Assembly (NCBI RefSeq): GCF_004337475.1
Contig: NZ_SJZJ01000005.1
Location: 1 to 64,000, forward strand
Source: Nocardioides jejuensis
GTDB taxonomy: Bacteria > Actinomycetota > Actinomycetes > Propionibacteriales > Nocardioidaceae
Direction: 5' to 3'
DNA length: 64,000 bases
The notes beneath the pieces were generated by a model, which worked only from the letters and a program-made list of their open reading frames with translations, did not search any database and was not told the origin of the DNA. This document shows, piece by piece, positions 301-64,000 of this stretch. The first letter of the stretch is position 1. The number at the start of each line of letters is the position of its first letter. The translations under genes were made by a program, and so were the position numbers.

Positions 301-302
301 AT

Positions 303-319: not shown

Positions 320-329
320 TGTGGCCGGT

Positions 330-629: not shown

Positions 630-648
630 CCCTCCGAAAGGATTCCCC

Positions 649-3933: not shown

Positions 3934-4009
3934 CCGCGCGCGTTGCGCGACACGCCGCTGTTGCCCCTAGCATGTTTCGCGTTCCGCTCCTCCTCACTCG
4001 GAGTTCACT

Positions 4010-4627: not shown

Positions 4628-4631
4628 CCTC

Positions 4632-5633: not shown

Positions 5634-5658
5634 CCTCCGAGGTCTGACCCCCGAACGC

Positions 5659-5696
5659 CGAACGCCCCGCTGGTCTCCGGACCGGCGGGGCGTTCG
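5659..5696. terminator. Bidirectional terminator hairpin between pit and the acyltransferase gene
   Basis: A 16-bp stem (CGAACGCCCCGCTGGT paired with the 5681-5696 arm, one G-T pair) closes a 6-nt loop. It lies between convergent genes ending at 5633 and 5706. No long T-tract is present, as is common in actinobacteria. Confidence 0.85.
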
Positions 5697-5705
5697 TGTC
5701 TGTCG

Positions 5706-7978: not shown

Positions 7979-8001
7979 GCGCTGACGCTAGCGGTACGCC
8001 G

Positions 8002-8023
8002 CGTCACCTGCCGTTCACGGTGA
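8002..8023 (+). promoter_or_regulatory. Candidate PHO box upstream of ppk
   Basis: Two adjacent 11-bp units, CGTCACCTGCC and GTTCACGGTGA, resemble the direct-repeat PhoP/RegX3 sites of actinobacteria (core GTTCACC). They lie just upstream of the -10-like AACACT (8029-8034), which is 6 nt before the ppk GTG. Match by eye only. Confidence 0.4.
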
Positions 8024-8040
8024 GGTGAAACACTCGTGCC

Positions 8041-10215
<2,175 letters not shown>

Positions 10216-10221
10216 GCTGAC

Positions 10222-10282
10222 GCGATACCGATCAGTACAGCCCCTGATGGGGCACGAAAAGGACCGTACTGATCGGTATCGC
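10222..10282. terminator. Long nested hairpin between convergent ppk and a membrane protein gene
   Basis: A perfect 17-bp inverted repeat (GCGATACCGATCAGTAC at 10222-10238 against 10266-10282) encloses a second hairpin, GCCCC-TGAT-GGGGC at 10240-10253. It ends 8 nt before the stop codon of the minus-strand gene, so it can terminate transcription from both sides. The length and nested design exceed a simple terminator. Confidence 0.75.
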
Positions 10283-10290
10283 AAGGCCGA

Positions 10291-11340: not shown

Positions 11341-11388
11341 GGTGCGGTCTCCCTCATGCTCCGGCTGCGGTGATGTGAGACTAGCGCC

Positions 11389-49264: not shown

Positions 49265-49969
49265 TCAGACGTTGTCCGGGTTGTCGTCCAGCGAGTCGAG
49301 CCAGACCAGGTCCTCGATCGTGACCAGGCGGGCCGCGAGCGCGTACTCCACGAGCCGGACGCGGCGGTTGCTCGCGGTGCGGTCGGTGCTGCCGACGAGG
49401 CCGCGGACGCCCATCTTCGCCAGCTTCTCGCAGACGTTGTCGAGCTTGCGGTTGAACTTCGTGGTCGTCCATCCGAGCCGCTCCGCCGCAGTGCGCGAGT
49501 GCGGGATGGCGCCGGCGCCGCGGTTGCCGCGGCGCAGGATGTCCTCCGCCAGGGCGAGGATCAGCAGGCGCTGGTCGGGGGTGAAGCTCACCCGGCCCAT
49601 CGTGGTCGCGCCGTCGCCGGCCTGCTCCTCCACCGCGGTGGAGAACGGCGCAGCGTCCTGCGAGACGTCGAGCTCGTACGTCGTCGGGCCGGCCGTGAAC
49701 CAGACGACGCAGTGCGGGAAGACGAGGGGCACGCGCGCGCCGGGGGAGAGCCAGGTCTGCACGAGGCCGTGTGCGTCGGCGATCGTCGCGGTGAGCGCGT
49801 TGCCGACGTTGGCGAGCCAGAGCAGCCCGTCGACGTAGGTGAACTCGAGGAAGCGGCGGTGCAGGTAGGGGTTGTCGTCGATGACGAGATCGCCCTCGCG
49901 TCCGACGCAGACCTGGGCGTCAGCAGTGACCTCGTGGATCTCGCCGCAGTAGTCGACCGTTGCCTTCAC
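49265..49969 (-). CDS. FHA-like N-terminal / HTH C-terminal protein
   Basis: A 234-aa protein. The N-terminal 95 residues look FHA-like: CVGREGDLVIDDNPYLHRRFLEF resembles the GR-x-L-DD-xx-hR pattern of forkhead-associated domains, but the usual SRxH motif is altered to LHRR. The C-terminal half includes RLLILALAEDILRR and SRTAAERLGWTTTKFNRKLDNVCEKL, an apparent helix-turn-helix. The combination suggests a phospho-responsive transcription factor. It sits 4 nt after the Ser/Thr kinase gene, with GAGGTGAT before the GTG, so it should be the operon's output gene. FHA assignment is tentative. Confidence 0.7.
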   Translation of the reverse strand: MKATVDYCGEIHEVTADAQVCVGREGDLVIDDNPYLHRRFLEFTYVDGLLWLANVGNALTATIADAHGLVQTWLSPGARVPLVFPHCVVWFTAGPTTYELDVSQDAAPFSTAVEEQAGDGATTMGRVSFTPDQRLLILALAEDILRRGNRGAGAIPHSRTAAERLGWTTTKFNRKLDNVCEKLAKMGVRGLVGSTDRTASNRRVRLVEYALAARLVTIEDLVWLDSLDDNPDNV

Positions 49970-49973
49970 CGGA

Positions 49974-51626
49974 TCACCTCGTGCACGCCCGTCCGGCATC
50001 GGTCGAGCCGGCGGTGCCGCGGCGCGCCTGGACGGCGATGCAGGTGGCGCCGTCGGGAAGGGCGGTCACGGTGGCACTGGTCTTGTCGGTGCGCTTCCAC
50101 TGCCGGGCCACGGCGCCGTTGCGCGAGACGACCTCGTACTGGTACCAGTCGCCCTTCTGCTCCCGGTCCCACGTGAAGGTGATCCGGTCGCCCTTGACCC
50201 CGGCGACGCGCACCGTCGGGTTGGCCGGATTCAGCTCGACGTTGACGTCGGCGGGGCTGGTGGCGCCCGGACCTTCGGTCAGGTTGACGCTCTGGGGTGC
50301 CTCGGTGTCGCCGCCGCGCGACAGGAAGGCCCCGATTGCCACGGCCGTCGCCAGGAGTGCAACGGCGCCTCCGATCGCGATCCAGCGACCGCCGTTGCCC
50401 GAGGTCGCGGGCTCGTCGGCGACGGGCGCCTCCGCGCGGGCCGGCCGTGCGGTCGTGGGTGCGGCGCCCGCCGGAGGCGTGGCGCGGACGGGGCGTGCCG
50501 CAGTCGGCGCCGCGCCGGTGTCTGCCCGGGCCGGCCGGGCAGTGGTGGGGGCCGAGCCGGTGTCGGCGCGGGTGGGGCGCCGTGCGGTCGGCGCTGCGCC
50601 CGAGGCGGGCTGCGCGGGAGCAGCCTGCACCGGGCTGGACGGTGTGAGGGGGACCCGCAGCGTGGTCCGCTCGGCACCCTCCGGCGTCGTCTCGGGAAGG
50701 GTCTGGGTCGGCGTCTGCGAGAACGGCTCGGCGCCCGAGGTCCGGACCGGGTCATGGCCGTGCTCGAGCACGACGATCTCGGTGCGGGCCAGGCGCAGCT
50801 CCTGCTCGACACGCTGGAGGTGGCGGGCGAGGTCCATGGCACTGCGCGGACGGTGCTCGGGCTTCTTGGCCATTGCCTGCGCGAGCAGTCGTTCGAGGCT
50901 GCTCGGCACGTCGGCCCGGCCGGTCATCGGCGGCTTGGAGTGGACGATCCGCGTGAAGAGCGCCCGCTGCGAGTTGTCGTCTCCCGGCATGCTGAACGGC
51001 GAGCGCCCGACCAGGAGATTCCACAGGGTGGCGCCGAGGGAGTAGACGTCGGAGGCCTGCGACCCGTTGGACGCGCCGGTCAGGACCTCGGGTGGCGACC
51101 ACGGCATGGAGACGCCGACGTTCTCCTCCTCCTCGGCCTCGCCGGGACGGCCGGCGATGCCGAAGTCGGTGAGACCGGGGACGCCGTACGAGCTGATCAG
51201 GACGTTCTGCGGCTTGATGTCGCGATGGATGATCCCCGCGCGGTGGGCGGTCTCGATCGCGCTGGCCAGCTGGATGCCCATCTTGAGTGCGTCGGGCACG
51301 GACAGCGGCTGCGCCTTGACGCGTTCGGCGAGGTCCGGACCGGGGTAGTACCGCATCTCCAGGTACGGGCGGCCGTCCGGAGCCGTGCCGGCCCCGAGCA
51401 CCGGAACGATGTACGGGTGCTCGGCGAGCTCGCCCATCGTGTCGGCCTCGGCGACGAACTGGGCCTGCTGGGCCGCGTCCATGATGTCGGCCTTGAGCAC
51501 CTTGACGGCGACCTGCATGCGCGGCCGCTGGCGCTCGTACAGGTAGACGTCGGAGAAGCCGCCGGAGCCGAGCTTGTGCTGGTAGTCCAGACCGGGGAGC
51601 TCCGGGCCCTGCTCGTCGGCGCTCAC
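49974..51626 (-). CDS. Transmembrane Ser/Thr protein kinase
   Basis: A 550-aa PknB-type receptor kinase. The kinase domain covers about residues 15-275: the glycine loop is GSGGFSDVYLY, the catalytic loop HRDIKPQNV, and the Mg-binding segment TDFGIAG. A Pro/Ala/Arg/Thr-rich juxtamembrane linker with several near-repeats (TTARPARADTG and similar) follows. A single transmembrane helix, WIAIGGAVALLATAVAIGAFLS, lies near 414-435. The outer ~115-residue domain resembles a fibronectin-III-like fold. The GTG start overlaps the FHA gene's stop (GTGA). It is co-transcribed with PP2C and FHA genes, forming a complete phospho-signalling unit divergent from the Ig-like surface proteins. Confidence 0.93.
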   Translation of the reverse strand: MSADEQGPELPGLDYQHKLGSGGFSDVYLYERQRPRMQVAVKVLKADIMDAAQQAQFVAEADTMGELAEHPYIVPVLGAGTAPDGRPYLEMRYYPGPDLAERVKAQPLSVPDALKMGIQLASAIETAHRAGIIHRDIKPQNVLISSYGVPGLTDFGIAGRPGEAEEEENVGVSMPWSPPEVLTGASNGSQASDVYSLGATLWNLLVGRSPFSMPGDDNSQRALFTRIVHSKPPMTGRADVPSSLERLLAQAMAKKPEHRPRSAMDLARHLQRVEQELRLARTEIVVLEHGHDPVRTSGAEPFSQTPTQTLPETTPEGAERTTLRVPLTPSSPVQAAPAQPASGAAPTARRPTRADTGSAPTTARPARADTGAAPTAARPVRATPPAGAAPTTARPARAEAPVADEPATSGNGGRWIAIGGAVALLATAVAIGAFLSRGGDTEAPQSVNLTEGPGATSPADVNVELNPANPTVRVAGVKGDRITFTWDREQKGDWYQYEVVSRNGAVARQWKRTDKTSATVTALPDGATCIAVQARRGTAGSTDAGRACTR

Positions 51627-53257
51627 GGCGTGACCTCGTAGCGGAGCGTCACGATGTCGGCGATGCCGATCTCGGCGCCGTTCTCGAGCTGGTAGTCCTC
51701 GTTGGCTCGCAGCTGCTGCGGCGAGCCGCCCGGCAGGGTGAGCGTGGTGCCGTTGGCAGTGCCGAGGTCGCGCACGATGACGTGCCAGCCGTCGAGCGTG
51801 ATGCGGGCGTGCTGGCGGCTGATCTCGCCGGAGTCTCCGACACGCAGCAGGTGCGGCCGCTCGGTCGTCCCTTCGGGCTCGAACGGTGCGCGGCCGAGCA
51901 CCGCGTCCTTGTCGAGCACCAGTCGGTCGCCGTTGGCCAGGACGAGTGCGCCGAGCGCGGGCCGCGGAATCTGGCGCGGCTCCTGGTTGTCGGACACCGG
52001 CTTTCCGCAGAGGCGACAGGTCGGCTCATGGGCCGGCGTGGGGTGGCCCGCGGGGCAGTCGATCGCCAGCACGCTCGGGCCGACGATGCCGGCAGAACCG
52101 AGCTCCTTGAGCAGGTCGGCGCGACTGAGCGTCTGCTGCTCACGTGCCGACGGCTCGGATGGCTCGGACGCCGGCGTGGTGGCGGGTGCTGCCGCGGGAC
52201 GTGGTGCTGGGGGCGGCGTGGGTCGCTCCGGTGTCTGGTACGCCGGGGCCGGCCGCGCCTCCGCGGGCGCCGGGGTCCAGCTGCCGCTGAGCCACGGAAC
52301 GCCGTCGATGAGCCCGCTGCCCGCACCCGCCGGTGCGGCGGGTGCTGCCGGGGGCGCATCGGCGGGGTCCGCCTCCGCGTCCGGCTCTGCCGCCGGTGCG
52401 TCATCGGAGTCGGTGGTCGCGGCGTCGTCGGCCTTCCAGACGGCCGTCATCGAGGTCGCGGGCATCGGGGCAGCGGACTCCTCGACCGGCGGCTCCGCGA
52501 TCACGGGCTCCCTGGACGCGGCGTCCTCGGTCATCTGCGCGAGCAGCGCATCGCGATCGGAGGTGTCCGACGTGAGCAGCGCGTGGAACGTCTGCGCGCG
52601 AGCGGCGAGCGGATCGGCCTCCTCGACGGGCTCCTCGACTGGCTCCGCTGCCGGGACGTCGTCGGCGGGCGCTGCCTCGACGTCAGGGTGCTGAGGGGCG
52701 GCGCTGTCCGTGGCTTCAGCAGGTGCTGAGGTCGGCGCGACAGGTTGGGTGACCGCGTCCGGCGCGGGCGTCGCCGCTGTATCGGCGGGCGCGGCCGCCG
52801 GGGCTGGCGCATCGGCCGTCGCGTCGAGCGTCACCGTCACTGCGCCGGCTGCGGTGACCCCCACGTGCAGCGGCAGCTGTACGGCGGTACCGACGCCGGC
52901 GTCCGCGCGCAGGACCAGTGACGTCACTGCCTGGAGCGTCACGTCGGACCACGTGCCTCCCGGGGTGGAGCCGAGCGTGACCGGCGCGCCGTCGACGATC
53001 GCCTCGACCACCGCGGGGTGGCGGACGACGAGGCGCGTCGTCGCGCCGTCCGTCGCGGCCACCGCGAAGGCTGGCATGGCGTCGAAGCCGTCGGCCAGCA
53101 GCAGCTGGAGCACGCCGTCGATCGCTGTCGCGGAGGCCGGGCGAAGGGCCTCCCAGAGCTGGGGGAGTCGCGGGTCGTCGATCCGGATGCCGGCGAGCAT
53201 CCGGGCGTTCTCGCCGCAGATCGCCACGGCCTCGCCGGGCGTGAACGTCGTCGTCAT
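51623..53257 (-). CDS. Large FHA-domain protein with zinc-ribbon-like motif
   Basis: A 544-aa protein. The N-terminal ~150 residues form an unidentified domain (LQLLLADGFDAMPAFAVAA and so on). A long Ala/Pro/Glu/Asp-rich disordered middle spans about 150-380. Then CPAGH and CRLCG (about 395-415) look like a zinc ribbon. The C-terminal FHA domain (about 430-540) has LDKDAVLGRAPFEPEG, ISRQHARITLDGWHVIVRDLGTANGT and the conserved SRQHA and NGT motifs. FHA domains bind phosphothreonine, so it is a likely substrate/adaptor of the kinase encoded next. Its start overlaps the PP2C stop (ATGA). Confidence 0.88.
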   Translation of the reverse strand: MTTTFTPGEAVAICGENARMLAGIRIDDPRLPQLWEALRPASATAIDGVLQLLLADGFDAMPAFAVAATDGATTRLVVRHPAVVEAIVDGAPVTLGSTPGGTWSDVTLQAVTSLVLRADAGVGTAVQLPLHVGVTAAGAVTVTLDATADAPAPAAAPADTAATPAPDAVTQPVAPTSAPAEATDSAAPQHPDVEAAPADDVPAAEPVEEPVEEADPLAARAQTFHALLTSDTSDRDALLAQMTEDAASREPVIAEPPVEESAAPMPATSMTAVWKADDAATTDSDDAPAAEPDAEADPADAPPAAPAAPAGAGSGLIDGVPWLSGSWTPAPAEARPAPAYQTPERPTPPPAPRPAAAPATTPASEPSEPSAREQQTLSRADLLKELGSAGIVGPSVLAIDCPAGHPTPAHEPTCRLCGKPVSDNQEPRQIPRPALGALVLANGDRLVLDKDAVLGRAPFEPEGTTERPHLLRVGDSGEISRQHARITLDGWHVIVRDLGTANGTTLTLPGGSPQQLRANEDYQLENGAEIGIADIVTLRYEVTP

Positions 53258-54048
53258 CGCTCGTCCTCCAGGAAACGGGCACGCGGTCCGGTCGTGGCCA
53301 GCGCGGTGTCGTCTGCCAGCTCGGTGTCGGGCAGCCGCACCAGGACGGCGGTGACGTTGTCACGTCCGCCGGCCTCGACGGCAGCGGCCACCAGCCGGGC
53401 GGCGCCTGACTCGGGAGAGGCCGAGTCGCGGCCGATCTGCAGGATCGTCGCGTCGTCGAGCTCGTTGGTCAGGCCGTCGGAGCAGAGCAGGAAGGTGTCG
53501 CCCGCAGCCGGCGGGAAGATCCAGACATCGACCTCGGGAGCAGGATCCGAGCCGAGGGAGCGCGTCACGATGTTGCGGAGCGGGTGGATCCGGGCCTGCT
53601 CGTCGGTCAGGCGGCCGGCGTCGACGAGCTCCTGCACCTCGGAGTGGTCGTGCGTGAGCAGACGGATGCCGGTGTCGCTGAGGCGATAGACCCGCGAGTC
53701 GCCGACGTTGAAGACCAGCCAGTGCGGCGACCCGAAGTGGTCGATCAGCGCGATGCCGGTCAGGGTCGTGCCCATGCCGTCGTGCTCCGGGTTGGCCCGG
53801 GCGTCGGCGAGCAGGGCGGCGTTGGCCGCGACGACTGAGCGGCGCACGTCGTCGGCGGAGAGGTCGTGGCGTCCGGCGAGTGGGCGGAACGCGTCGATCG
53901 TGAGCCGGCTCGCGACGTCGCCGCGGGCGTGGCCGCCCATGCCGTCAGCCACCACGGCCAGGTGTTTCGCGGCCAGGCACGCGTCCTCGTTGAGCGCACG
54001 GACCGCACCGACGTGGGACGCCGCCCCCATCTCCAGCTGCACAGCCAC
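53254..54048 (-). CDS. PP2C-type Ser/Thr protein phosphatase
   Basis: A 264-aa metal-dependent phosphatase. Motifs visible are VADGMGGHARGDVAS, NVGDSRVYRL, CSDGLTNELDD and GGRDNVTAVLV, containing the metal-binding Asp residues. The N-terminus reads MGAASHVGAVRALNEDACLA. I chose the GTG at 54048 (with GGGAGAG upstream) because it leaves a typical PP2C domain; a longer frame is open. It is the first gene of the operon, overlapping the FHA gene. It probably reverses phosphorylation by the kinase of the operon. Confidence 0.92.
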   Translation of the reverse strand: MAVQLEMGAASHVGAVRALNEDACLAAKHLAVVADGMGGHARGDVASRLTIDAFRPLAGRHDLSADDVRRSVVAANAALLADARANPEHDGMGTTLTGIALIDHFGSPHWLVFNVGDSRVYRLSDTGIRLLTHDHSEVQELVDAGRLTDEQARIHPLRNIVTRSLGSDPAPEVDVWIFPPAAGDTFLLCSDGLTNELDDATILQIGRDSASPESGAARLVAAAVEAGGRDNVTAVLVRLPDTELADDTALATTGPRARFLEDER

Positions 54049-54135
54049 CTGCTCTCCCGTGATGCACCGCCAGTGGTGCGGATCCCCGTCATTGCATCGG
54101 GACAGACAGGCTTCCGCGATCACCCCGTCGACGTC

Positions 54136-54151
54136 TAGTCCAGTTGGACTA
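54136..54151. promoter_or_regulatory. Perfect palindrome in the promoter region of giant gene 1
   Basis: TAGTCCA-GT-TGGACTA spans the region between the divergent PP2C and Ig-like genes. It overlaps a -35-like TTGGAC (54144-54149), 17 nt before a conserved TTGCAT. In the second giant gene's upstream region the palindrome is degraded (TAGTCCG, then TTGACG), while the 17-nt spacing and the CGCACAAGGGGGA ribosome-site stretch are kept. Confidence 0.55.
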
Positions 54152-54190
54152 TATGTTGGCGCGAACTTGCATCGCACAAGGGGGACTTGG

Positions 54191-57100
54191 ATGCACTCTC
54201 GGGGTTTTCTGCGTCGTCATCGGGTGACGGTCGCGTCGTGGACGGCGCTCACCGTCGTCACTGGCGCACTGGTGGCGTACGCGGTCGCGTCCGACGGTTA
54301 CCCGGTGCACAAGGCCGAGCTCAACGACGGCGGGGTGTGGGTGACGAACCAGTCGATGGGTGCGGTCGGTCGGCAGAACGTGCCGGTCGCGCAGATCGAC
54401 GGCCGGGTCTTCGCCGGAGCTGCGTTCACCTCGAACCCGAGCCTCGACGTCCTCCAGGACGGGTCGGCCGTCATCTCGGTCAACCGCGCGACCCAGACCC
54501 TGATGCCGATCGATGCCGCGATGGCCGCCGGCCTCGACGAGGAGACCGTGTCCGCAGCAGGCGCGGCAACGCTGTTCGGTGGCGGCAGCGTCGGCAGCCT
54601 CGACCCGTCGACCGGCAAGCTGTGGGCCACGACCGTCGACCCCGACAGCGGAGCCGGCTCGCTCGCTGAGCTGGGTGCCGAGGCCGACCCCGTGGGCCGA
54701 GTGGGCGGTGGTGCGGTCGGCACGGCTGGCTCGGACGGCACGCTCTACGCGGCATCGGCGGACAGCGGAAACCTCCTGACGCTGCGTCGTACGCCGGACG
54801 GCCTGGGCTTCGAGAAGCCGACCTCCACGCGCGTCGACGCAGATCTGCCCGCCGCGCTGCACCAGATGTCGGCTGTCGGTGAGCAGCCGGTCCTGCTCGA
54901 CGACCAGGGCAACCTGGCCACGCCGGACCACGACCTGACCAACGTCGGGGACGGCGCACGACTCCAGCGGGAGGGGCGCTCGGCAGACGAAGTGGTGGTC
55001 GCGACCCCGGAGGCGCTCGTGGCCGTTGCCCTCGACGGCGCGTCCCGCCGCACGCTGGCGAAGGTAGATGCCGCGCAGTCGACGGCGGCCCCGGTCGTGA
55101 TGCCCAACGGCTGCACCTTCGGTGCCTGGGCGGCGGGCGAGGTCGGCACGCTGGCGTCTGCCTGCGGCGGCGCGAAGGCGTCGGTCAACACGTTCGACAT
55201 CAAGGACGGTGCTGAGCTGGTCTTCCGGGTCAACCGCAATCAGATCGTCCTCAACGACGAGAAGAGCGGCATGACCTGGACGGTCACCGACTCGGCGCCG
55301 CAGCTGATCTCGAACTGGGAGGCGTTCCGTCAGGAGACCTCGAAGAAGGACGACTCCAAGGCGCACAAGACCGAGGCGCAGACGACCCAGCCGCCGCAGG
55401 CGAACCCCGATGACCTGGGTGCTCGTGATGGCCGTACGACGGTGCTCAACGTCCTCGACAACGACCTGATCGCCTCCGACGGCATCCTGTCGATCGTCGA
55501 TGTCACGGGCGTGACCCGCGACGACGTCCACGTCCGGATCGCTCCTGATCGGCAGTCGCTGCTCGCGACGGTGGACCCGGGTGCGAGCGGGATCGCCAAC
55601 TTCCGCTACACGATCGACGACGGCACGGGGAAGAAGACCTCGCAGGCCGACGGAAAGGTCACCCTGCACGTCCGCACCGACGGTGGCAGCGGCAAGCCGG
55701 TCCTCCGCAAGCACGCGACGTCGCCGACGTACAGCGTGGCAGCCGGCAGCGTTGTCGAGTTCCCGGTGACGCCGGAGTGGCGCGATCCCACGTACGGCGA
55801 CCCGGTCGTCGTCCAGTCCGTTCGCAGTGCGGGGGACGTGGAAGTCAGCACGACCGCGCTCGGTCTCGTGCGGTTCGAGGCCCCGCCCGGCAGCAAGGGA
55901 GGCCTGCGCACCGTCAACTATCTGGTCAGCACGGGAGCGGAGACCGTTGCCGGCAAGGCGACGGTCGACGCCGTGCCGGCCGGGACGCGCACCGTCGCGC
56001 CGCAGGCGCAGCCGGACGTGGTCTCGGGTGAGGTGGGCGGTCCGATCACGGTGAAGCCGCTGGACAACGACATCCCGGGTGCGGATGGGTCCGATGCAGG
56101 TGCCCGCCTGACGCTCGCGGGGCGGGTTGCGCCGACGGGTGGACTCGGCGTGGACACCGACCTCGACTCGGGGCGGGTGACCGTCACGGGTGCTCGGCCC
56201 GGCACGTACTACCTCGACTATCGCGCCGGGTTCGGTGCCGCTGCGCGTGACCAGAGCAGGATCCGCGTCGACATCTCGCCGCGCACCGCAGACGGTCGGG
56301 CGCCTGTCGCATCGCCCGATGTGGCGGTGGTCCACGGGGTCTCGCCGATCACCGTCGACGTCCTCGCCAACGATGTCGATCCCCAGGGGCGGATGCTCGT
56401 GGTCCAGCACGCGGAGCCGTCGAGCCCGGACAGCCAGCTGGAGGTGGCCGTCATCGACGGTCGCTGGCTCCGGGTCAACGCGATCGATGGGGCGATGTCG
56501 CCGAAGAGCCAGTCGGTGACGTACACGATCAGCAATGGTGATGCGACGGCCGAGGGGTCGGTCAATGTGACGCAGCGCGATGCGTTGTCGGGTGCGGAGA
56601 ATGCGCCGATTGCTCAGACGGACCGGATCACGGTGCGTGCGGGCGACACGGCGGCTGCCCCGGTGCTGGACAACGACGCGACGCCGTCGGGTGATCCGGT
56701 GGGTCTGGTGCTGGATGCGTCGGTGGAGCCGATCGGCGAGCTGCGTGTCCTGCCGAAGGTCGGCGCGGCGTATGTGTCGGGTCGTCAGGTGCGGTACGTC
56801 GCTCCGGCCGACGTGAGCGGGCCGACGGATGTCGATGTGCAGTACGTCGTGGAGAACACCGGTGATCCGACGGCGGAGACGGCGATCGGGACGTTGAAGG
56901 TGCACATCACGCCGGCGCCGTCGGCGAAGAACCCGGACCTGGCCCCGACGCCGCGCGCGCTGGAGGGCCGTGTCGTGCAGGGCGACCTGGTGACGTTGAA
57001 GCTGCCGCCGACGGGGTCGGACCCGGACGGCGACTCGGTGGCGGTGACGGGTGTGGCCACGGCTCCGAAGTTCGGCCGGATCCTGGCGTTCGGTGCGAAC

Positions 57101-60100
57101 TCGTTGACCTATCAGGCCTACCCGGATGCCACCGGCACGGATGACTTCACCTACGAGGTGACCGACCCGTTCGGCGAGTCCGCCATCGGCCAGGTCCATG
57201 TCGGCGTCGTCGAGGCCGGCGCCCCGCAGGCGCCGGTGGCCGTCAACGACAGCTTCATCGCTGACCCGTCGCGCACGGTCGACGTCGACGCCCTGGCCAA
57301 CGACCTGCGTACGCCGGGGACCCGGGTGCGGATCCTTCCGCTGGAGCATGCGGGCGCCGGCGTACGACTGGGGAGCGAGGGTGGGCCGGTCAGTGTGGCT
57401 GCTCCGCCGCATGGTCAGAGCCGCAACGTCACGTACACGATCAGCAACGGCCTCGCGGAGTCCCGGGGAGTCGTGACCGTCGTCGGTCAGGATGGCTACA
57501 ACAACCCGCCGGTGACGCGCGATCTCTTCGCCAAGCCCAAGGCACACGCGGCCACCGTGACGGTCGATGTGCTCGCTGCGGTGCACGACGTCGACGGCCC
57601 CGAGGACGCGATGAAGCTGGATGCCGTGACCGGTGTCGAGTCCGCGACGGGAGAAGCCGGCCCGCGGATCCACGGCGGGTCCGTCGAGATTCCCGTCAAG
57701 GACGTCGCGCAGGTGCTGGCCTATCGGGTGCTGGATGACGAAGGTGCTGCGGCGGCGGGTGCGATCTACGTGCCGGCCAAGCCGACGGGCACGCCGTATC
57801 TGAAGCCGGGCGCGTCGATCGAGATGAAGCCGGGCTCGACGAAGGATGTCGACCTGAGCGATCTGGTCGAGGACCCCGAGGGCGACCCGGTGGTGCTGAC
57901 GACGGTCGACGGGATCGGCGCCTCGCCGGCCGAGCGGCTCACGGCCACGGGCAAGGACAAGGACACCCTGGAGCTGACCGCGACGAAGAGCGAGGGTCCC
58001 GGTTCGGTGGTCTTCGAGGTGTCCGACCGTGCCAAGCTGACCGACCCGGAGGCGCACACGGCGTTCATCTCGGTGCCGGTGCAGGTGGGCGACCTCAAGC
58101 CGGTCATCAACTGCCCCTCGATGCCCATCGACGTGCCGGAGGGTGGAGTCAGCAAGTCGATCGACATCGCCTCGGTCTGTCACGTGTGGACCAGCGACCC
58201 CCGCCAGGCCCGCGACCTGAGCTTCACGGCCGCGTGGAAGAAGCAGCCGACGGACGTCGACCTCGAAGGGTCGGGCCGGAGCGTCCAGCTCGTCGCCGGT
58301 GGGGGAGCGCGCCGTGGCGACACGGGAGTCGTGGCGCTCGCGGCCAAGGGGTATTCCGCGAGCGGAACGCTGCTGGTCCGTGTCGTCGCGCTGCCCGCTC
58401 CGAAGCTCGCGCCGATCCACCTGGACACCGAGGCCGGCAAGCCAGTCACCGTCGACGTCGACCAGTACCTGACCTCGCCACTGCCTCCGTCGTCCCGCGA
58501 CGTCAAGGTCATGAAGGTCGCGGCGCTCGCGGGCGCCTCGGCATCCAGCAGCGTCTCCGGGTCGGACCTGACGCTGTCGCCCCAGCCCGACACCGACGGC
58601 CTGATGCACTACCGGCTCGAGGTCAGCGACGTCGGCGGCAGCACCACGAGCGCTCGCCCGCGGGCAGCGGGTGACGTCACGCTGGCGGTCGTGGCGCGCC
58701 CTGATGCCCCGACCGGGCTCGTCGCGGGGCAGGAGATGCTCGCCAACACGGTCGCCCTGACCTGGCGTACGCCGGACAACAACGGCAAGCGCATCGATGG
58801 CTACGAGGTGCAGTACTCAGGCAAGACACACAACACCTTCCGCTGCTCCGGTACGCCGTGCCGGGTCACGGGCCTGAAGAACGGCGACCCGTACACGTTC
58901 AAGGTCCGCGCGCACAACGCCACCCAGCAGAACGGCGGCTGGTCGGAGTGGAGCAACACCGCGAAGGCGACCCCGGACGCGCTGACCGGTCCGCCGCTCG
59001 ACCCGACCGTCGTTCTGCAGCGGGACAACGCACTGACCGTGAAGTGGTCGCCCCCGGCCCCCTGTGACTGCTCCGACGTCCAGAAGTACCGGGTCACCTG
59101 GCCCGGCGGCGTCAGGGACCTGTCGGCTGCCACCCGCGAGACCACGGTGTCGGCTGCGAACGGCGACCCGATCACCGTGACCATCAAGGCGCTCAACAAG
59201 AAGGGCATCCAGACCAACGACGGGCCGTCCACCAGCGTCACCGGCACCGGCGCGGGCAGGCCTGCGATGCCGGCCACGCCTTCGCTCGCACCGGCCAACC
59301 GGCCCGGCAACGCGTCCAAGGCGATCAACGTGTCGTGGGCACCGGTCGGCGCCAACGGCCCGGGCCCGGCGTCGTACCAGGTCCAGCGCAGCAGCGGCGC
59401 CGGCACGACGATCGTGTGTGCCTGGACGACCGCGACGTCCTGCAACGACGAGGTGACCAACGACGGCACCGTCTACAGCTATCGGGTCCAGGCCAAGAAC
59501 GCCGAGGCTGACTCCCCGCGCGAGACGACGGCCGCCGGCAAGGCCACCCACATCTCCGACTGGAGCGGTGCCCGCTCGATCGAGGCATCCGCACCGCCCG
59601 CCGCGCCGAACCTCACGTCGGCCACGCCCACAGGGGCGAACAGGACGGTGGCGATCACCTTCGATGTCGGCGCCTCGCACGGCAAGAGCAACACCGTCAC
59701 CTGCTCGGCCAACGGTTCTTCGTGCGGCACCTGGACCTTCGCGAACGCCGGCCAGAGCGGCGTTCCGAAGACCATCACGGTGCCCTCGAACGGGTCCGCC
59801 ACCACGATCACGCTGAACGCCTGCAACGGTGGTTCGGCCAATCTCTGCGCGGGCTCCAACTCGCGTTCGGTGGTCGCCTACGGTCCGATCGGCAGCGTGT
59901 CGATCAATGCGACCCCGGACAGTCCGGCGGTCGGTGACCGGACGACCAACTGGTCGATCTCGGTCGATCCCAACGGTGCCCCCGTGCACTGGGTGGTCCG
60001 CAGCTCCGTCAACGGCGTCATCGCCCAGGGCAACTCTCAGAACGGGGCGTTCAACAAGTCCGGCGGCGAGACCCTCGGCTACTCCACCAACGTCACCTAC

Positions 60101-60496
60101 ACCCTGACCGTCACCGATGCGAGCGGCCACGGCCGCACCGGCAAGAACGACTCGAACGGCGCCCGCACCGGCTCTGCGCCGCCGCCCCCGCCGCCTCCGC
60201 CCCCGCCGGGTGGCGGCGGAGGATCGGGTGGATCGGTGACCGTGTCGAGCGTGCCGAACGGGTGCGACATCGCGGGCTGCAATCCGCGCTGCCCGAGCAT
60301 CAACGGATGCTGGAACCTCACGGCGACGGGGCACAGCTTTGCCTCGCCGTCTTCGTGCCACCTGGCCGGCAGCAGCCAGTCGGCACCGTTCACGCTGGGC
60401 AACTACTCGAAGGCTGTCCCCGGCACGTACACGGCGGGCACCTACTACGTGACCTGTGCGAACGGTGCGAGATCCAGTTCGTTCACGCTCAGGTAG
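54191..60496 (+). CDS. Giant membrane-anchored Ig-like/fibronectin-III surface protein 1
   Basis: A 2101-aa predicted surface protein. The N-terminal segment (RRHRVTVASWTALTVVTGAL, about residues 9-30) is a signal anchor. An extracytoplasmic domain of ~370 residues follows, then repeated Ig-like/cadherin-type modules. Each of these is marked by a short motif ending in a V/A-L-D/A-N-D core (VLDNDLIASDG, PLDNDIPGADG, VLANDVDPQG, VLDNDATPSGD, ALANDLRTPG). From about residue 1500 come FnIII domains (TWRTPDNNGKRIDGYEVQYSG), a poly-Pro/poly-Gly linker near 1996-2012 and a Cys-rich C-terminal domain. AAGGGGG precedes the ATG. It is divergent from the kinase operon and followed by a paralogue. Probably an adhesin or cell-envelope scaffold regulated by phosphorylation, by inference. 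No LPXTG motif is visible. Confidence 0.88.
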   Translation: MHSRGFLRRHRVTVASWTALTVVTGALVAYAVASDGYPVHKAELNDGGVWVTNQSMGAVGRQNVPVAQIDGRVFAGAAFTSNPSLDVLQDGSAVISVNRATQTLMPIDAAMAAGLDEETVSAAGAATLFGGGSVGSLDPSTGKLWATTVDPDSGAGSLAELGAEADPVGRVGGGAVGTAGSDGTLYAASADSGNLLTLRRTPDGLGFEKPTSTRVDADLPAALHQMSAVGEQPVLLDDQGNLATPDHDLTNVGDGARLQREGRSADEVVVATPEALVAVALDGASRRTLAKVDAAQSTAAPVVMPNGCTFGAWAAGEVGTLASACGGAKASVNTFDIKDGAELVFRVNRNQIVLNDEKSGMTWTVTDSAPQLISNWEAFRQETSKKDDSKAHKTEAQTTQPPQANPDDLGARDGRTTVLNVLDNDLIASDGILSIVDVTGVTRDDVHVRIAPDRQSLLATVDPGASGIANFRYTIDDGTGKKTSQADGKVTLHVRTDGGSGKPVLRKHATSPTYSVAAGSVVEFPVTPEWRDPTYGDPVVVQSVRSAGDVEVSTTALGLVRFEAPPGSKGGLRTVNYLVSTGAETVAGKATVDAVPAGTRTVAPQAQPDVVSGEVGGPITVKPLDNDIPGADGSDAGARLTLAGRVAPTGGLGVDTDLDSGRVTVTGARPGTYYLDYRAGFGAAARDQSRIRVDISPRTADGRAPVASPDVAVVHGVSPITVDVLANDVDPQGRMLVVQHAEPSSPDSQLEVAVIDGRWLRVNAIDGAMSPKSQSVTYTISNGDATAEGSVNVTQRDALSGAENAPIAQTDRITVRAGDTAAAPVLDNDATPSGDPVGLVLDASVEPIGELRVLPKVGAAYVSGRQVRYVAPADVSGPTDVDVQYVVENTGDPTAETAIGTLKVHITPAPSAKNPDLAPTPRALEGRVVQGDLVTLKLPPTGSDPDGDSVAVTGVATAPKFGRILAFGANSLTYQAYPDATGTDDFTYEVTDPFGESAIGQVHVGVVEAGAPQAPVAVNDSFIADPSRTVDVDALANDLRTPGTRVRILPLEHAGAGVRLGSEGGPVSVAAPPHGQSRNVTYTISNGLAESRGVVTVVGQDGYNNPPVTRDLFAKPKAHAATVTVDVLAAVHDVDGPEDAMKLDAVTGVESATGEAGPRIHGGSVEIPVKDVAQVLAYRVLDDEGAAAAGAIYVPAKPTGTPYLKPGASIEMKPGSTKDVDLSDLVEDPEGDPVVLTTVDGIGASPAERLTATGKDKDTLELTATKSEGPGSVVFEVSDRAKLTDPEAHTAFISVPVQVGDLKPVINCPSMPIDVPEGGVSKSIDIASVCHVWTSDPRQARDLSFTAAWKKQPTDVDLEGSGRSVQLVAGGGARRGDTGVVALAAKGYSASGTLLVRVVALPAPKLAPIHLDTEAGKPVTVDVDQYLTSPLPPSSRDVKVMKVAALAGASASSSVSGSDLTLSPQPDTDGLMHYRLEVSDVGGSTTSARPRAAGDVTLAVVARPDAPTGLVAGQEMLANTVALTWRTPDNNGKRIDGYEVQYSGKTHNTFRCSGTPCRVTGLKNGDPYTFKVRAHNATQQNGGWSEWSNTAKATPDALTGPPLDPTVVLQRDNALTVKWSPPAPCDCSDVQKYRVTWPGGVRDLSAATRETTVSAANGDPITVTIKALNKKGIQTNDGPSTSVTGTGAGRPAMPATPSLAPANRPGNASKAINVSWAPVGANGPGPASYQVQRSSGAGTTIVCAWTTATSCNDEVTNDGTVYSYRVQAKNAEADSPRETTAAGKATHISDWSGARSIEASAPPAAPNLTSATPTGANRTVAITFDVGASHGKSNTVTCSANGSSCGTWTFANAGQSGVPKTITVPSNGSATTITLNACNGGSANLCAGSNSRSVVAYGPIGSVSINATPDSPAVGDRTTNWSISVDPNGAPVHWVVRSSVNGVIAQGNSQNGAFNKSGGETLGYSTNVTYTLTVTDASGHGRTGKNDSNGARTGSAPPPPPPPPPPGGGGGSGGSVTVSSVPNGCDIAGCNPRCPSINGCWNLTATGHSFASPSSCHLAGSSQSAPFTLGNYSKAVPGTYTAGTYYVTCANGARSSSFTLR
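56504..57215. repeat. Near-identical block shared by the two giant genes (copy 1)
   Basis: Matches 62958-63669 at a fixed offset of 6454 bases. Runs of dozens of bases are identical, with mostly synonymous differences elsewhere. Codon choice inside (GAT, AAT, TTG, TAT, GCG-rich) differs from the C-ending codons that dominate the window. Confidence 0.8.
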
Positions 60497-60574
60497 CCGC
60501 GCCGGGCGGGGACGCCGGGTGGCGGCACCGGGTAGTTCTCCCCATCCGGATCGTGGTGAATTCACCGGCGACCC

Positions 60575-60632
60575 ATCGACGTCTAGTCCGCTTGACGCTA
60601 CGTTGACTCAGAACTTGCAACGCACAAGGGGG
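60575..60632 (+). promoter_or_regulatory. Duplicated promoter region of giant gene 2
   Basis: CGACGTCTAGTCCGCTTGAC followed by CTTGCAACGCACAAGGGGGA matches the sequence upstream of giant gene 1 with scattered changes. TTGACG is a -35-like element, 17 nt before TTGCAA. The region between the two giant genes (60497-60574) holds no other recognisable feature. Confidence 0.55.
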
Positions 60633-63600
60633 ATGTACGTGCGCTCTCGGGGTGGTACTCGGGCATTTCTTCGCCGCCACAAGGTGACGGTGGCGTCGTG
60701 GACGGCGCTGGCCGTGGTCTCCGGCGTGCTCGTCACGTACGCCGTGAACGCTGACGGGTATCCCGTGCACAAGGCCGAGCTCAACGACGGCGGCGTGTGG
60801 GTGACGAACCAGTCGATGGGTGCGGTCGGTCGGCAGAACGTGCCGGTCGCCCAGATCGACGGCCGGGTCTTCGACGGAGCCGACTACACCTCGAACCCGA
60901 ACCTTGATGTCCTCCAGGACGGGTCGGCGGTCATCTCCTTCAACCGCGCCTCCAACTCGTTGCTCCCGATCGACGCCGCGATGGCGACCGGACTCGACGA
61001 GCAGGCCGTCACGGCCGCGGGCTCGGCCACGCTCTTCGGTGGCGGCAGCCTCGGCGCGCTGGACCACTCGACCGGCAAGCTGTGGGCGACGACCGTCGAC
61101 CCCGACACCGGCACCGCGCAGCTCACCGGCGTCACCAAGGACGCCAAGCCTGTGGCAACCGTCGGCGGCAACGCGGTCGGCGCGGCAGGCACGGACGGCA
61201 CCCTGTACGCAGCGTCCGGCGATGACGGCAAGGTCGTCGCCCTGCGCCGGGCAGCCGACACCTTCGAGAAGCCCGAGGTCGACGACCTGTCGGCGGACCA
61301 CGAGGGCGACCTCGCGGCGATGACCGTGGTGGGTCAGACGCCGGTGATGGTCGATGACAAGGGCAATCTGCTCACCCGTTCCGACTCGCTCGGCAACGTC
61401 GGCGCGGGCGCCGAGGTCCAGCAGGCGGGCCCGGAGAGCGACGACGTCCTCGTGGCCACGCGCGACGCGCTGGTTGCTGTCGCCGTCGATGGCGGCGGCA
61501 CGCACGAGGTCGCGAAGGTCGGTGCCCAGGCCTCGGCCGCGGCGCCCGTCGAGATGGCCAACGGCTGCGCCTTCGCGGCGTGGGGGAGCGGCCAGACCGG
61601 CACGCTGGTCACCGCCTGTGGTGATGCGAAGGCGTCGGTCAACACGTTCGACATCAAGGACGGCGCAGAGCTGGTCTTCCGGGTCAACCGCAACGAGATC
61701 GTGCTCAACGACGAGAAGAGCGGCATGACCTGGACGGTCACCGACTCCGAGCCCGAGCTGATCTCTAACTGGGAGGCGTTCCGTCAGGAGACCTCGAAGA
61801 AGGACGACTCCAAGGCCCACAAGACCGAGGCCAAGACGACGCAGCCGCCGCAGGCCAAGACCGATGAGCTCGGTGCCCGTGACGGGCGTACGACGGTGCT
61901 CAACGTCCTCGACAACGACCTGATCGCCTCCGACGGCATCCTGTCGATCGTCGACGTCAAGGGCGTCACCCGCGACGACGTCCACGTCCGGATCGCTCCT
62001 GACCGGCAGTCGCTGCTCGCGACCGTGGACCCGGGTGCGAGCGGCATCGCCAACTTCCGCTACACGATCAGCGACGGCACGGGGAAGAAGACCTCGCAGG
62101 CCGACGGCGACGTCAAGCTCACGCTGCGCAGCGACAACGGCAGCGGCAAGCCGAAGCTGCGCGAGAACGCCGAGGCGCACAGCTACCCGGTCGCCGCGGG
62201 CGGCGTCGTCGAGTTCGCGGTCACGCCTGACTGGCGCGACAAGGACTATGGCGACCCGGTCATCGTGCAGTCGGTGAAGGCCAGCGGTGATCTGGACGTG
62301 AGCACGACCGCGCTCGGTCTGATCCGTGCCGAGGCCCGTCCGGGCAGCAAGGGCGGCATCCAGACGGTCAGCTACACGGTGACGACCGGGGGCACTCCGA
62401 GCTCGGGGTCGGTCAAGGTCGAGGTGGTGCCCGCGGGCACGCGCACCGAGCCCGCGAAGGCCGAACCGGACGTGGTGTCGGGTGAGGTCAACGGTCCGAT
62501 CACGGTGAAGCCGCTGGACAACGACATCCCGGGTGCCGACGGCTCGGACGCCGGCGCGAAGCTCGCCCTGGCCGGACGCGTCACCCCGACCGGCGGTCTC
62601 GACGTCGACACCGACCTCGAGTCCGGCGAGGTCACCGTCACCGGGTCGCGACCGGGCACGTACTTCCTCGACTACCGCGCGGGCTTCGGTGCCGCCGCAC
62701 GTGCGGACGGCAAGATCCGCGTCGACATCACCCCGCAGACGCCGGAGGGCAACCGGCCCGTTGCCACCCCTGACGTCTCGGCGGTCCACGGCTTGTCCCC
62801 GGTGACGATCGACGTCCTGGCCAACGACTTCGACCCGCGCGGCCGCATGCTCGTCGTCCAGAACGCCCAGCCGTCGAGCCCGGACAGCCAGCTGGAGGTG
62901 GCCGTCATCGATGGTCGCTGGCTGCGGGTCAACGCGATCGACGGCGCGATGTCGCCGAAGAGTCAGTCGGTGACGTACACGATCAGCAACGGTGATGCGA
63001 CGGCCGAGGGGTCGGTCAATGTGACCCAGCGTGACGCGTTGTCCGGTGCCGAGAATGCGCCGATTGCGCAGACGGACCGGATCACGGTGCGTGCGGGCGA
63101 CACCGCCGCCGCGCCGGTGCTCGACAACGACGCGACGCCGTCGGGTGATCCGGTGGGTCTGGTGCTGGATGCGTCGGTGGAGCCGATCGGTGAGCTGCGT
63201 GTCCTGCCGAAGGTGGGCACGGCGTACGTGTCGGGTCGTCAGGTCCGCTACGTCGCTCCGGCCGATGTCACCGGTCCGACCGATGTCGACGTGCAGTACG
63301 TCGTGGAGAACACCGGCGATCCGACGGCGGAGACGGCGATCGGGACGTTGAAGGTGCACATCACGCCGGCGCCGTCGGCGAAGAACCCGGACCTGGCCCC
63401 GACGCCGCGCGCGCTGGAGGGCCGGGTGGTGCAGGGCGACCTGGTGACGCTGAAGCTGCCGCCGACGGGGTCGGACCCGGACGGCGACTCGGTCGCGGTG
63501 ACGGGTGTGGCCACGGCTCCGAAGTTCGGCCGGATCCTGGCGTTCGGTGCCAACTCGTTGACCTATCAGGCGTATCCGGATGCGACCGGCACCGATGACT

Positions 63601-64000
63601 TCACCTACGAGGTGACCGACCCGTTCGGCGAGTCCGCCATCGGCCACGCCCGGGTCGGTGTGGTGCAGGCGGGCGAGCCCCAGGCCCCCGTCGCGGTCAA
63701 CGACTCGTGGCTGGCCGACCCCGCGCGCACCGTCGACGTCGATGCCCTCGGCAACGACCTGCGCACGCCCGGCACGCGCGTCGACATCCTCCCGCTCGAT
63801 GACACCGGCACGGACGTCAAGCTCCAGTCCGACCAGGGTCCCGTGAGCGTCCACGCTCCCGAGGACGGCAAGACCCGCAACGTCACGTACACGATCACCA
63901 ATGGCCTCGCGGAGTCCCGGGGAGTCGTCAGCATCGAGGGACGCAAGGGCTACAACAACCCGCCCATCACGCGCGACCTGTTCGCCACTCCCAAGGCAGG
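60633..64000 (+). CDS. Giant membrane-anchored Ig-like surface protein 2 (partial, runs off window)
   Basis: A tandem paralogue of the preceding gene; 1122 codons are visible without a stop. The N-terminus (MYVRSRGGTRAFLRRHKVTV, then ASWTALAVVSGVLVTYA) is a signal anchor like that of copy 1. The Ig-like modules occur in the same order with the same LDND/LAND motifs. The extracytoplasmic N-terminal domain has diverged clearly, but the Ig-like block 62958-63669 is nearly identical at the DNA level to 56504-57215 of copy 1. The ATG is preceded by AAGGGGG as in copy 1. Whether it carries the FnIII and C-terminal domains lies outside the window. Confidence 0.87.
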   Translation, partial: MYVRSRGGTRAFLRRHKVTVASWTALAVVSGVLVTYAVNADGYPVHKAELNDGGVWVTNQSMGAVGRQNVPVAQIDGRVFDGADYTSNPNLDVLQDGSAVISFNRASNSLLPIDAAMATGLDEQAVTAAGSATLFGGGSLGALDHSTGKLWATTVDPDTGTAQLTGVTKDAKPVATVGGNAVGAAGTDGTLYAASGDDGKVVALRRAADTFEKPEVDDLSADHEGDLAAMTVVGQTPVMVDDKGNLLTRSDSLGNVGAGAEVQQAGPESDDVLVATRDALVAVAVDGGGTHEVAKVGAQASAAAPVEMANGCAFAAWGSGQTGTLVTACGDAKASVNTFDIKDGAELVFRVNRNEIVLNDEKSGMTWTVTDSEPELISNWEAFRQETSKKDDSKAHKTEAKTTQPPQAKTDELGARDGRTTVLNVLDNDLIASDGILSIVDVKGVTRDDVHVRIAPDRQSLLATVDPGASGIANFRYTISDGTGKKTSQADGDVKLTLRSDNGSGKPKLRENAEAHSYPVAAGGVVEFAVTPDWRDKDYGDPVIVQSVKASGDLDVSTTALGLIRAEARPGSKGGIQTVSYTVTTGGTPSSGSVKVEVVPAGTRTEPAKAEPDVVSGEVNGPITVKPLDNDIPGADGSDAGAKLALAGRVTPTGGLDVDTDLESGEVTVTGSRPGTYFLDYRAGFGAAARADGKIRVDITPQTPEGNRPVATPDVSAVHGLSPVTIDVLANDFDPRGRMLVVQNAQPSSPDSQLEVAVIDGRWLRVNAIDGAMSPKSQSVTYTISNGDATAEGSVNVTQRDALSGAENAPIAQTDRITVRAGDTAAAPVLDNDATPSGDPVGLVLDASVEPIGELRVLPKVGTAYVSGRQVRYVAPADVTGPTDVDVQYVVENTGDPTAETAIGTLKVHITPAPSAKNPDLAPTPRALEGRVVQGDLVTLKLPPTGSDPDGDSVAVTGVATAPKFGRILAFGANSLTYQAYPDATGTDDFTYEVTDPFGESAIGHARVGVVQAGEPQAPVAVNDSWLADPARTVDVDALGNDLRTPGTRVDILPLDDTGTDVKLQSDQGPVSVHAPEDGKTRNVTYTITNGLAESRGVVSIEGRKGYNNPPITRDLFATPKA
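62958..63669. repeat. Near-identical block shared by the two giant genes (copy 2)
   Basis: Partner of 56504-57215. Flanking sequence on both sides is much less similar between the two genes. Confidence 0.8.

What the first reader, a model, noticed from the sequence alone, without database searches (positions are those of the whole stretch)
54191..64000. Tandem giant Ig-like surface proteins with a gene-converted core
Two giant anchored proteins are adjacent. Their N-terminal domains have diverged while a ~700-bp core of Ig-like modules is almost identical and uses atypical codons (GAT, AAT, TTG, TAT). This mosaic indicates recent gene conversion or acquisition of the core, and hints that the variable N-terminal domain is under different selection, as in adhesins or self-recognition proteins. 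They are divergent from a kinase operon, suggesting a regulated surface system.
Basis: partly seen in the sequence, partly recalled or inferred. Interest (0 to 1): 0.65.

Follow-up and report, generated by a model that had tools for sequence, protein, structure and literature searches.

The report
Twin giant surface proteins, patchwise homogenised
Two side-by-side genes for giant surface proteins in the actinobacterium Nocardioides have copied stretches of DNA into each other while their outermost tips stay different; they sit in a cluster resembling known signalling and protein-secretion loci, so this is an unusual variant of known parts rather than something wholly new.

Summary
The window lies in a Nocardioides genome. 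The two adjacent giant proteins (Ig1 54191-60496, 2101 aa; Ig2 60633-66929 in contig coordinates, cut by the window end) are real tandem paralogs. The 720-bp core is 94.6% identical in DNA and 99.2% in protein. It is not one core: a two-state model of silent sites finds alternating homogenised and diverged tracts along the gene. Paralog dS is 0.16-0.35 in five tracts (0.47 in a sixth) and 0.78-1.0 in the blocks between. In 12 of 35 sliding trees the paralogs are sisters to the exclusion of a related species' copy-2 orthologue; in 20 of 35 the orthologues pair. This is gene conversion after speciation on an older duplication; that relative has lost copy 1. I found no sign of positive selection or foreign acquisition. 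What stays copy-specific is mainly the C-terminal tip (33% between copies, 94% between copy-2 orthologues). The proteins have an N-terminal membrane anchor, a beta-propeller, an Ig/FN3 stalk and a tip. The locus (kinase/phosphatase/FHA, MoxR, DUF58, transglutaminase, EssC-like ATPase, WXG100 pair) resembles both the bifidobacterial PFNA cluster and T7SSd (TsdI). Function is inferred: an envelope-spanning recognition component of a type VII-like locus.

The parts
54191..60496 (+). Ig1, giant Ig/FN3 surface protein copy 1 (2101 aa): TM helix aa 6-35, beta-propeller ~42-380, Ig/FN3 stalk ~402-1990, Pro/Gly linker, C-terminal tip ~2015-2101
   Evidence: Pfam Big_9 x4, fn3; AlphaFold2; propeller, VIA Z 19.7
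60633..64000 (+). Ig2, giant Ig/FN3 surface protein copy 2 (2098 aa from ATG 60633; continues to 66929 of the contig; by eye GTG 60639 fits the ribosome-binding site better)
54302..54652 (+). homogenised tract aa 38-154 of Ig1 (HMM; trees here pair Ig2 with G084, so weakly supported)
55028..55786 (+). homogenised tract aa 280-532 of Ig1 (HMM; paralogs sister in trees over aa 235-474)
57692..58291 (+). homogenised tract aa 1168-1367 of Ig1 (paralog dS 0.16; significant silent run aa 1198-1249)
58727..59617 (+). homogenised tract aa 1513-1809 of Ig1 (HMM; paralogs sister in trees over aa 1495-1674 only)
59861..60190 (+). weaker homogenised tract aa 1891-2000 of Ig1 (dS 0.47; trees pair Ig2 with G084)
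60191..60493 (+). copy-specific end of Ig1 (aa 2001-2101: Pro/Gly linker and Cys-containing tip), not homogenised
54049..54190 (.). divergent region between PP2C (start taken at 54048 by alignment with G084) and Ig1; kept in the relative that lost copy 1
60497..60632 (+). Ig1-Ig2 intergenic leader, found in the single-copy relative directly after the copy-1 leader
53254..54177 (-). PP2C phosphatase (start probably 54048)
   Evidence: Pfam PP2C_2, PP2C
51623..53257 (-). FHA-domain protein
   Evidence: Pfam FHA
49974..51626 (-). Ser/Thr protein kinase with one strongly hydrophobic stretch (from aa 416)
   Evidence: Pfam Pkinase 143 bits; hydropathy
49265..49999 (-). 244-aa protein conserved in relatives, no family above cut-off (FHA-like N-terminus and DNA-binding-like C-terminus by eye only)

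Best explanation
Shown: Ig1 and Ig2 are an old tandem duplication of one giant envelope protein. Parts of the two genes have since been homogenised by gene conversion; other parts have not. The same has happened, in partly different tracts, in a second Nocardioides species (G050), and a third (G084) has lost copy 1. Inferred: the donor in this genome was mainly copy 2. Each protein is held in the membrane by its N-terminal helix, carries a propeller next to the membrane, and uses a long Ig/FN3 stalk to present a small C-terminal tip at or beyond the wall. Conversion keeps much of the stalks alike because they do the same structural job; the tip stays copy-specific and gives each protein its own partner. 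The pair is the envelope component of a phosphorylation-controlled locus: the kinase/phosphatase/FHA set regulates; MoxR, DUF58 and the transglutaminase-like protein assemble or mature the surface proteins; the EssC-like FHA-FtsK ATPase with two WXG100 proteins and a WXG-hydrolase fusion moves substrates, as TsdI is thought to serve T7SSd.
For: Conversion: paralog dS 0.16-0.35 in five tracts (0.47 in aa 1891-2000) against 0.78-1.0 in the blocks between, with Ig2-G084 dS 0.35-0.62 throughout (blocks drawn after seeing the profile) and dS 0.29-0.45 for five neighbouring genes. 614 informative silent sites, two-state gain 24.2 log units against a maximum of 8.3 in 60 shuffles. Longest silent run p 0.0024 in this genome and p 0.0002 in G050, p 0.44-0.89 in the 6 cross-species pairs. 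Trees: paralogs sister in 12 of 35 windows, Ig2 + G084 in 20, neither in 3; G050 copies sister in 30 of 35. Old duplication: at the C-terminus Ig1 pairs with G050 copy 1 (support 1.0 and 0.99 in the last two windows), both have a long Pro/Gly linker, and unconverted dS exceeds the G000-G050 dS of neighbours, 0.38-0.66. Loss: the G084 leader is a fusion of the two leaders. Architecture. Locus; both 90-aa proteins pass the Pfam WXG100 cut-off. By my reading an EssC-like gene lies within ~20 kb of the Ig gene in 15 of 111 Ig-bearing genomes. MoxR and DUF58 both lie 4-10.5 kb downstream on the same strand in 70 of 74 named loci with room.
Against: No functional data. In 96 of 111 Ig-bearing genomes no EssC-like gene is listed near the Ig gene (list is cut, some genomes are fragmented), so the module can do without it and the type VII link may be secondary. 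WXG100-like ORFs were found in 8 of the 15 loci with EssC, some of them parts of longer ORFs, and not in 7, with a profile of two sequences. Trees do not support two of the HMM tracts (aa 38-154, 1891-2000), and several paralog-sister branches have low or no support value (0.28, 0.62, four without). The HMM converted state still emits 27% orthologue-like sites. The tip is also the least conserved part in distant relatives (0.18-0.30), and Ig2 and G050 copy 2 tips share only 40%, so part of the tip divergence is plain fast evolution. In G081 the paralog profile shows no correlation with ours once distant conservation is allowed for (0.00). Topology differs from TsdI.
Confidence: 0.58

Rival explanations
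1. Strong purifying selection alone: the core and other blocks are functionally constrained and the rest is free to drift; no conversion.
For: Paralog identity correlates with conservation among 11 distant relatives (rho 0.47); core dN/dS is the lowest (0.06).
Against: Synonymous divergence between paralogs is about 2- to 6-fold lower in the same blocks, while between orthologues it is not; paralogs are sisters to the exclusion of the orthologue in 12 of 35 windows; silent run p 0.0024.
Confidence: 0.04
2. The diverged blocks were imported into copy 1 by recombination with other lineages, on a recent duplication, rather than being old remains of an ancient duplication.
For: The first 754 aa of copy 1 use GAT more often (13/66 against 22/266, p 0.012); in some windows (for example aa 535-654) Ig1 lies outside the four other ingroup sequences.
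Against: G050 copy 1 and Ig1 share tip type and Pro/Gly linker; the G084 leader shows that two copies existed before the G000-G084 split. Import cannot be excluded for single blocks.
Confidence: 0.15
3. The Ig proteins have nothing to do with secretion: they are adhesins or sensors of a PFNA-type envelope signalling module, and the EssC-like gene is a chance neighbour in some genomes.
For: Only 15 of 111 Ig-bearing genomes have an EssC-like gene nearby (my reading); the bifidobacterial FN3 protein is reported to bind TNF-alpha and to serve adhesion (PMC8430577, abstract passages and section 5 read).
Against: The EssC-like gene overlaps the transglutaminase gene by four bases (71521-71524); EssC-like ATPase, kinase, WXG100 and a giant Ig-like protein are the T7SSd set (PMC11217815, section 9 read).
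Confidence: 0.3
4. Assembly artefact: one gene duplicated or collapsed by the assembler.
For: The genome is in 56 contigs; N. phosphati shows broken copies on two contigs.
Against: The copies are 80% identical in DNA overall with mismatches even inside tracts; G050 and G081 have the same tandem arrangement within long contigs; G084 keeps the scar of a lost copy.
Confidence: 0.03

Closest known systems
PFNA cluster of Bifidobacterium (pkb2-fn3-aaa-atp-duf58-tgm, plus prpC and fha in some species; PMC8430577: passages and section 5 read; PMC6803598: abstract; PMC10688814: passages)
   Same: Giant FN3-domain surface protein followed in order by MoxR ATPase, DUF58 and transglutaminase-like gene; Ser/Thr kinase, PP2C phosphatase and FHA genes in the cluster.
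   Different: Here the kinase/phosphatase/FHA genes are divergent, the giant gene is duplicated, an EssC-like ATPase and WXG100 genes follow, and the host is Nocardioides. PMC8430577 calls the cluster unique to bifidobacteria, whereas giant gene, MoxR and DUF58 stand in this order in 70 of 74 named loci with room, from several actinobacterial genera (the 74 come from the best 80 of 427 matches). Direct homology to bifidobacterial FN3 was not tested.
Type VII secretion system subtype d (T7SSd: TsdA, TsdC, TsdD, TsdH, TsdI; PMC11217815: abstract, section 9 and passages read)
   Same: FHA-bearing EssC-like ATPase, WXG100 protein, Ser/Thr kinase with a membrane segment, giant Ig-like protein; in Actinomycetota.
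   Different: [quoted passage not shown] MoxR, DUF58, transglutaminase and fibronectin have 0 occurrences in that paper's main text; TsdH was not looked for; two giant proteins instead of one.
MoxR-vWA-beta-propeller ternary conflict systems (PMC7159879: passages read)
   Same: MoxR matches Pfam bpMoxR (43 bits, cut-off 27), and the giant protein carries a propeller.
   Different: No vWA protein or effector array was identified here (not specifically searched); MoxR matches the general AAA_3 family far better (210 bits).

Membership tests
PFNA cluster | Order fn3 - MoxR-type AAA ATPase - DUF58 - transglutaminase | tested here: met
   Ig2 60633-66929, MoxR 66978-67946, DUF58 67951-69267, transglutaminase 69269-71524
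PFNA cluster | Kinase gene upstream in the same direction as fn3 (one operon) | tested here: not met
   Kinase, FHA and PP2C are on the opposite strand. Among 74 named loci a kinase just upstream is on the opposite strand in 43, the same strand in 21, and not found in 10
PFNA cluster | Giant protein homologous to bifidobacterial FN3 | not tested
   No bifidobacterial sequence was fetched; only shared domain types are known
T7SSd | EssC/TsdC-type ATPase with N-terminal FHA | tested here: met
   FHA at aa 117-179, FtsK_SpoIIIE; TIGR03928 EssC 508 bits, below its equivalog cut-off of 778
T7SSd | WXG100 protein TsdA | tested here: met
   Two 90-aa proteins at contig 75968-76240 and 76302-76574: Pfam WXG100 34.9 and 28.0 bits, cut-off 27.3
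T7SSd | Ser/Thr kinase TsdD with a TM segment | tested here: met
   Kinase domain aa 16-267, hydrophobic stretch from aa 416, mean hydropathy 2.26
T7SSd | TsdI: giant Ig-like protein with signal peptide and C-terminal TM helix | tested here: not met
   Giant Ig-like protein yes; N-terminal TM helix instead, no hydrophobic window in the last 300 aa
T7SSd | TsdH single-TM protein | not tested
   Not looked for
Canonical T7SSa (ESX) | EccB, EccD and mycosin | tested here: inconclusive
   Mycosin: no match in the genome (controls matched in 5 genomes, none over cut-off). EccB: no match, but no control rang. EccD- and FtsK-like genes occur elsewhere, contig 8
Gene conversion between paralogs | Silent-site homogenisation in tracts, and tract trees that contradict the rest | tested here: met

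The most novel reading that the evidence does not exclude
The two giant proteins form a matched pair in one type VII-like apparatus: a common, conversion-maintained stalk that must stay compatible (for example by pairing side by side or docking to the same ATPase complex), with two different tips giving two target specificities. PFNA of bifidobacteria and TsdI of T7SSd would then be branches of one actinobacterial envelope module whose tip decides the target.
Probability: 0.15. Interest if true: 0.7.

Novelty: new variant of a known kind. Interest (0 to 1): 0.42.

Why it matters
It may join two literatures that do not cite each other's terms in what I saw: the PFNA cluster, studied as a bifidobacterial immune-signal module ('type VII secretion' has 0 occurrences in the four PFNA papers listed), and the T7SSd subtype with its giant Ig-like TsdI of unknown role ('pfna' and 'fn3' have 0 occurrences in PMC11217815). 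It suggests a wider actinobacterial module. Conversion in the stalk with copy-specific tips points to the tip as the part to test for ligand binding, which a tip swap could do.

Tried and rejected
Rejected: 'one converted core' (several tracts); 'N-terminal hypervariability' (dN/dS below 1); 'foreign core' (dS near species level, flat GC); conservation alone. The codon observation holds for GAT and TTG but stays unexplained; by share of A/T-ending codons the relative G084 mostly lacks it at the same place (one window of six, from aa 940, is as high).

Led nowhere: PDB sequence search with the N-terminal half found nothing at E 0.01. The first named-genome scan with the single protein found no relative. 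A search for Nocardioides + fibronectin type III + type VII secretion gave 0 papers; one on gene conversion with Ig-like surface proteins gave 4, seen in the listing only, none on point by title. Foldseek with the whole N-terminal half returned generic Ig/cadherin chains with low TM-scores, not used. The second-half fold search lists FN3/Ig chains for model residues 410-808; the tip was not tested alone. Model pTM is 0.58 and 0.34, so domain folds but not their arrangement are used.

Selection of data: full loci were fetched for 17 of the 111 Ig-bearing genomes. Trees used five ingroup sequences and two outgroups. Dropped: G081_2 from the second structure alignment (spans two fetched pieces), G007_2 from alignment A1 (anchor motif differs), G109 from trees (copies broken).
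Full report
What is there. Ig1 runs 54191-60496 and Ig2 60633-66929, read into the contig's continuation. They are 2101 and 2098 aa and 78% identical in protein. Pfam finds Big_9, cadherin-like and one fn3 domain in each. AlphaFold2 models (mean pLDDT 84.7 and 80.4, pTM 0.58 and 0.34) give a membrane helix at aa 6-35, a beta-propeller at about 42-380 (VIA Z 19.7, rmsd 3.6 over 307 residues to cytochrome cd1, with BamB and others below), a chain of Ig/FN3 domains, a low-confidence Pro/Gly linker, and a small C-terminal beta domain whose blocks have pLDDT of about 37-77. None of 8 proteins examined has LPxTG near its end or a hydrophobic window in the last 300 aa.

Mosaic. Per 40 codons, paralog identity swings between 26% and 100%, and four-fold-site divergence between 0.04 and 0.76. 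A two-state model on 614 informative silent sites (paralogs agree against G084: 245; Ig2 and G084 agree against Ig1: 237; Ig1 and G084 agree: 132) gains 24.2 log units over one state; 60 shuffles gave a mean of 1.8 and a maximum of 8.3. The larger homogenised tracts are aa 38-154, 280-532, 738-1004, 1168-1367, 1513-1809 and 1891-2000. The model also calls short segments, and its homogenised state still emits 27% orthologue-like sites, so edges are approximate.

Conversion rather than constraint. Paralog dS is 0.16-0.35 in five tracts, 0.47 in aa 1891-2000, and 0.78-1.0 in the five blocks between (tip 1.4), while Ig2 against the G084 orthologue is 0.35-0.62 in all 12 blocks. The blocks were drawn after seeing the profile; the shuffles are the control. 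Five neighbouring genes have dS 0.29-0.45 between G000 and G084. In 35 overlapping 120-codon trees the two paralogs are sisters in 12 windows (supports 0.28-0.99, four without a value because of rooting), Ig2 and G084 in 20, neither in 3. Trees back the tracts around aa 235-474, 715-1014, 1135-1374 and 1495-1674, but not 38-154 or 1891-2000. The longest exact silent run gave p 0.0024 for this genome and p 0.0002 for G050, and p 0.44-0.89 for the 6 cross-species pairs. Distant relatives tend to be more conserved where the paralogs agree (rho 0.47), so constraint contributes, but it does not lower silent divergence. In the tracts Ig1 stands 0.41-0.61 from G084 and in the five blocks between 0.70-0.88, which points to copy 2 as the donor.

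Age and loss. G050 has the same tandem pair, with its own homogenised tracts; its copies are sisters in 30 of 35 windows. At the far C-terminus Ig1 pairs with G050 copy 1 (support 1.0 and 0.99 in the last two windows) and Ig2 with G084; Ig1 and G050 copy 1 also share a long Pro/Gly linker. The duplication therefore most likely predates the split of these species. G084 has one gene; its leader aligns on the left to the PP2C-Ig1 leader and, directly after, to the Ig1-Ig2 intergenic leader, so copy 1 was deleted there. Of 111 Ig-bearing genomes among 215 searched in the genus, three have an open tandem pair (this one, G050, G081), and G109 has two broken copies on two contigs; among 80 named loci two have a second copy (N. 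insulae, which is G081, and a Propionibacteriaceae MAG).

Selection. dN/dS is below 1 in every block and pair tested: 0.06-0.60 outside the tip, 0.04-0.83 in the tip, where dS is often saturated. The variable N-terminal part (aa 121-320) is 82-88% identical between Ig2 and G084. The last ~100 aa are the real copy-specific part: 33% between Ig1 and Ig2, 94% between Ig2 and G084, 46% between Ig1 and G050 copy 1, but only 40% between Ig2 and G050 copy 2. The same part is least conserved among distant relatives. After allowing for distant conservation, paralog identity profiles in this genome and in G050 still correlate (0.45, p 6e-4), but ours and that of G081 do not (0.00).

Locus. Upstream and divergent: PP2C, FHA protein, Ser/Thr kinase and a conserved 244-aa protein. 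Downstream: MoxR, DUF58, transglutaminase-like protein, a 1451-aa EssC-like protein with FHA and FtsK domains (508 bits to TIGR03928, cut-off 778), two 90-aa WXG100 proteins (34.9 and 28.0 bits, cut-off 27.3) and a fusion of a WXG-like N-terminus (below cut-off) with an alpha/beta hydrolase. By my reading an EssC-like gene lies near the Ig gene in 15 of 111 genomes; WXG100-like ORFs were found downstream in 8 of those 15. In 74 named loci with room, MoxR and DUF58 both lie 4-10.5 kb downstream on the same strand in 70, the transglutaminase too in 68; of the four exceptions two have a second Ig gene, one is the broken N. phosphati locus and one is Sinomonas. A separate EccD- and FtsK-type gene pair exists on contig 8.

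Comparison. The order giant protein-MoxR-DUF58-transglutaminase with kinase, phosphatase and FHA genes is that of the bifidobacterial PFNA cluster (PMC8430577, section 5 read), described there as unique to bifidobacteria. The set EssC-like, WXG100, kinase and giant Ig-like protein is that of T7SSd (PMC11217815, section 9 read), whose TsdI is proposed to span the envelope as a conduit or recognition part. One defining feature of each was tested and not met (kinase direction; TsdI topology), so I file the locus under neither, but hold that it most likely works like them.

Mechanism, by status. Shown: tandem duplication, conversion tracts, loss in G084, copy-specific tip. Predicted: domain order. 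Inferred: donor copy 2, surface stalk with tip for recognition, link to WXG100 export, phosphorylation control. Unknown: ligand, and whether the two copies act together.

Noticed in passing
L005 15569-18296 (contig 75968-78695): Two 90-aa WXG100 genes and a WXG-alpha/beta-hydrolase fusion, followed by an LppA-like lipoprotein gene, after the EssC-like gene.
   Followed up: partly
L065 1-1800 and L064 about 9860-11800 (N. phosphati): Both Ig copies look broken: one N-terminal part of ~345 aa runs into a partial MoxR, in the other the similarity ends after ~560 aa. Deletion or assembly error, not resolved.
   Followed up: no
L005 11122-11361 (first ~80 aa of the EssC-like protein): The stretch before the FHA domain looks ubiquitin/YukD-like by eye; a fused TsxB-like domain would matter because T7SSd is reported to lack one. 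Only a chance-level PDB match to a redesigned ubiquitin (E 0.64).
   Followed up: partly
L145 5185-9938 (G000 contig 8): Separate EccD-like (YukD plus TM) and FtsK-type genes next to cobalamin genes: a possible second, ESX-4-like locus.
   Followed up: partly
56453-57172 and 62907-63626: Excess of GAT and TTG codons in the core of both copies, mostly absent in G084; not explained.
   Followed up: partly
L132 (Propionibacteriaceae MAG), 71-12161: Another tandem pair of the giant Ig gene; the first copy ends in a similar C-terminal tip by eye.
   Followed up: no
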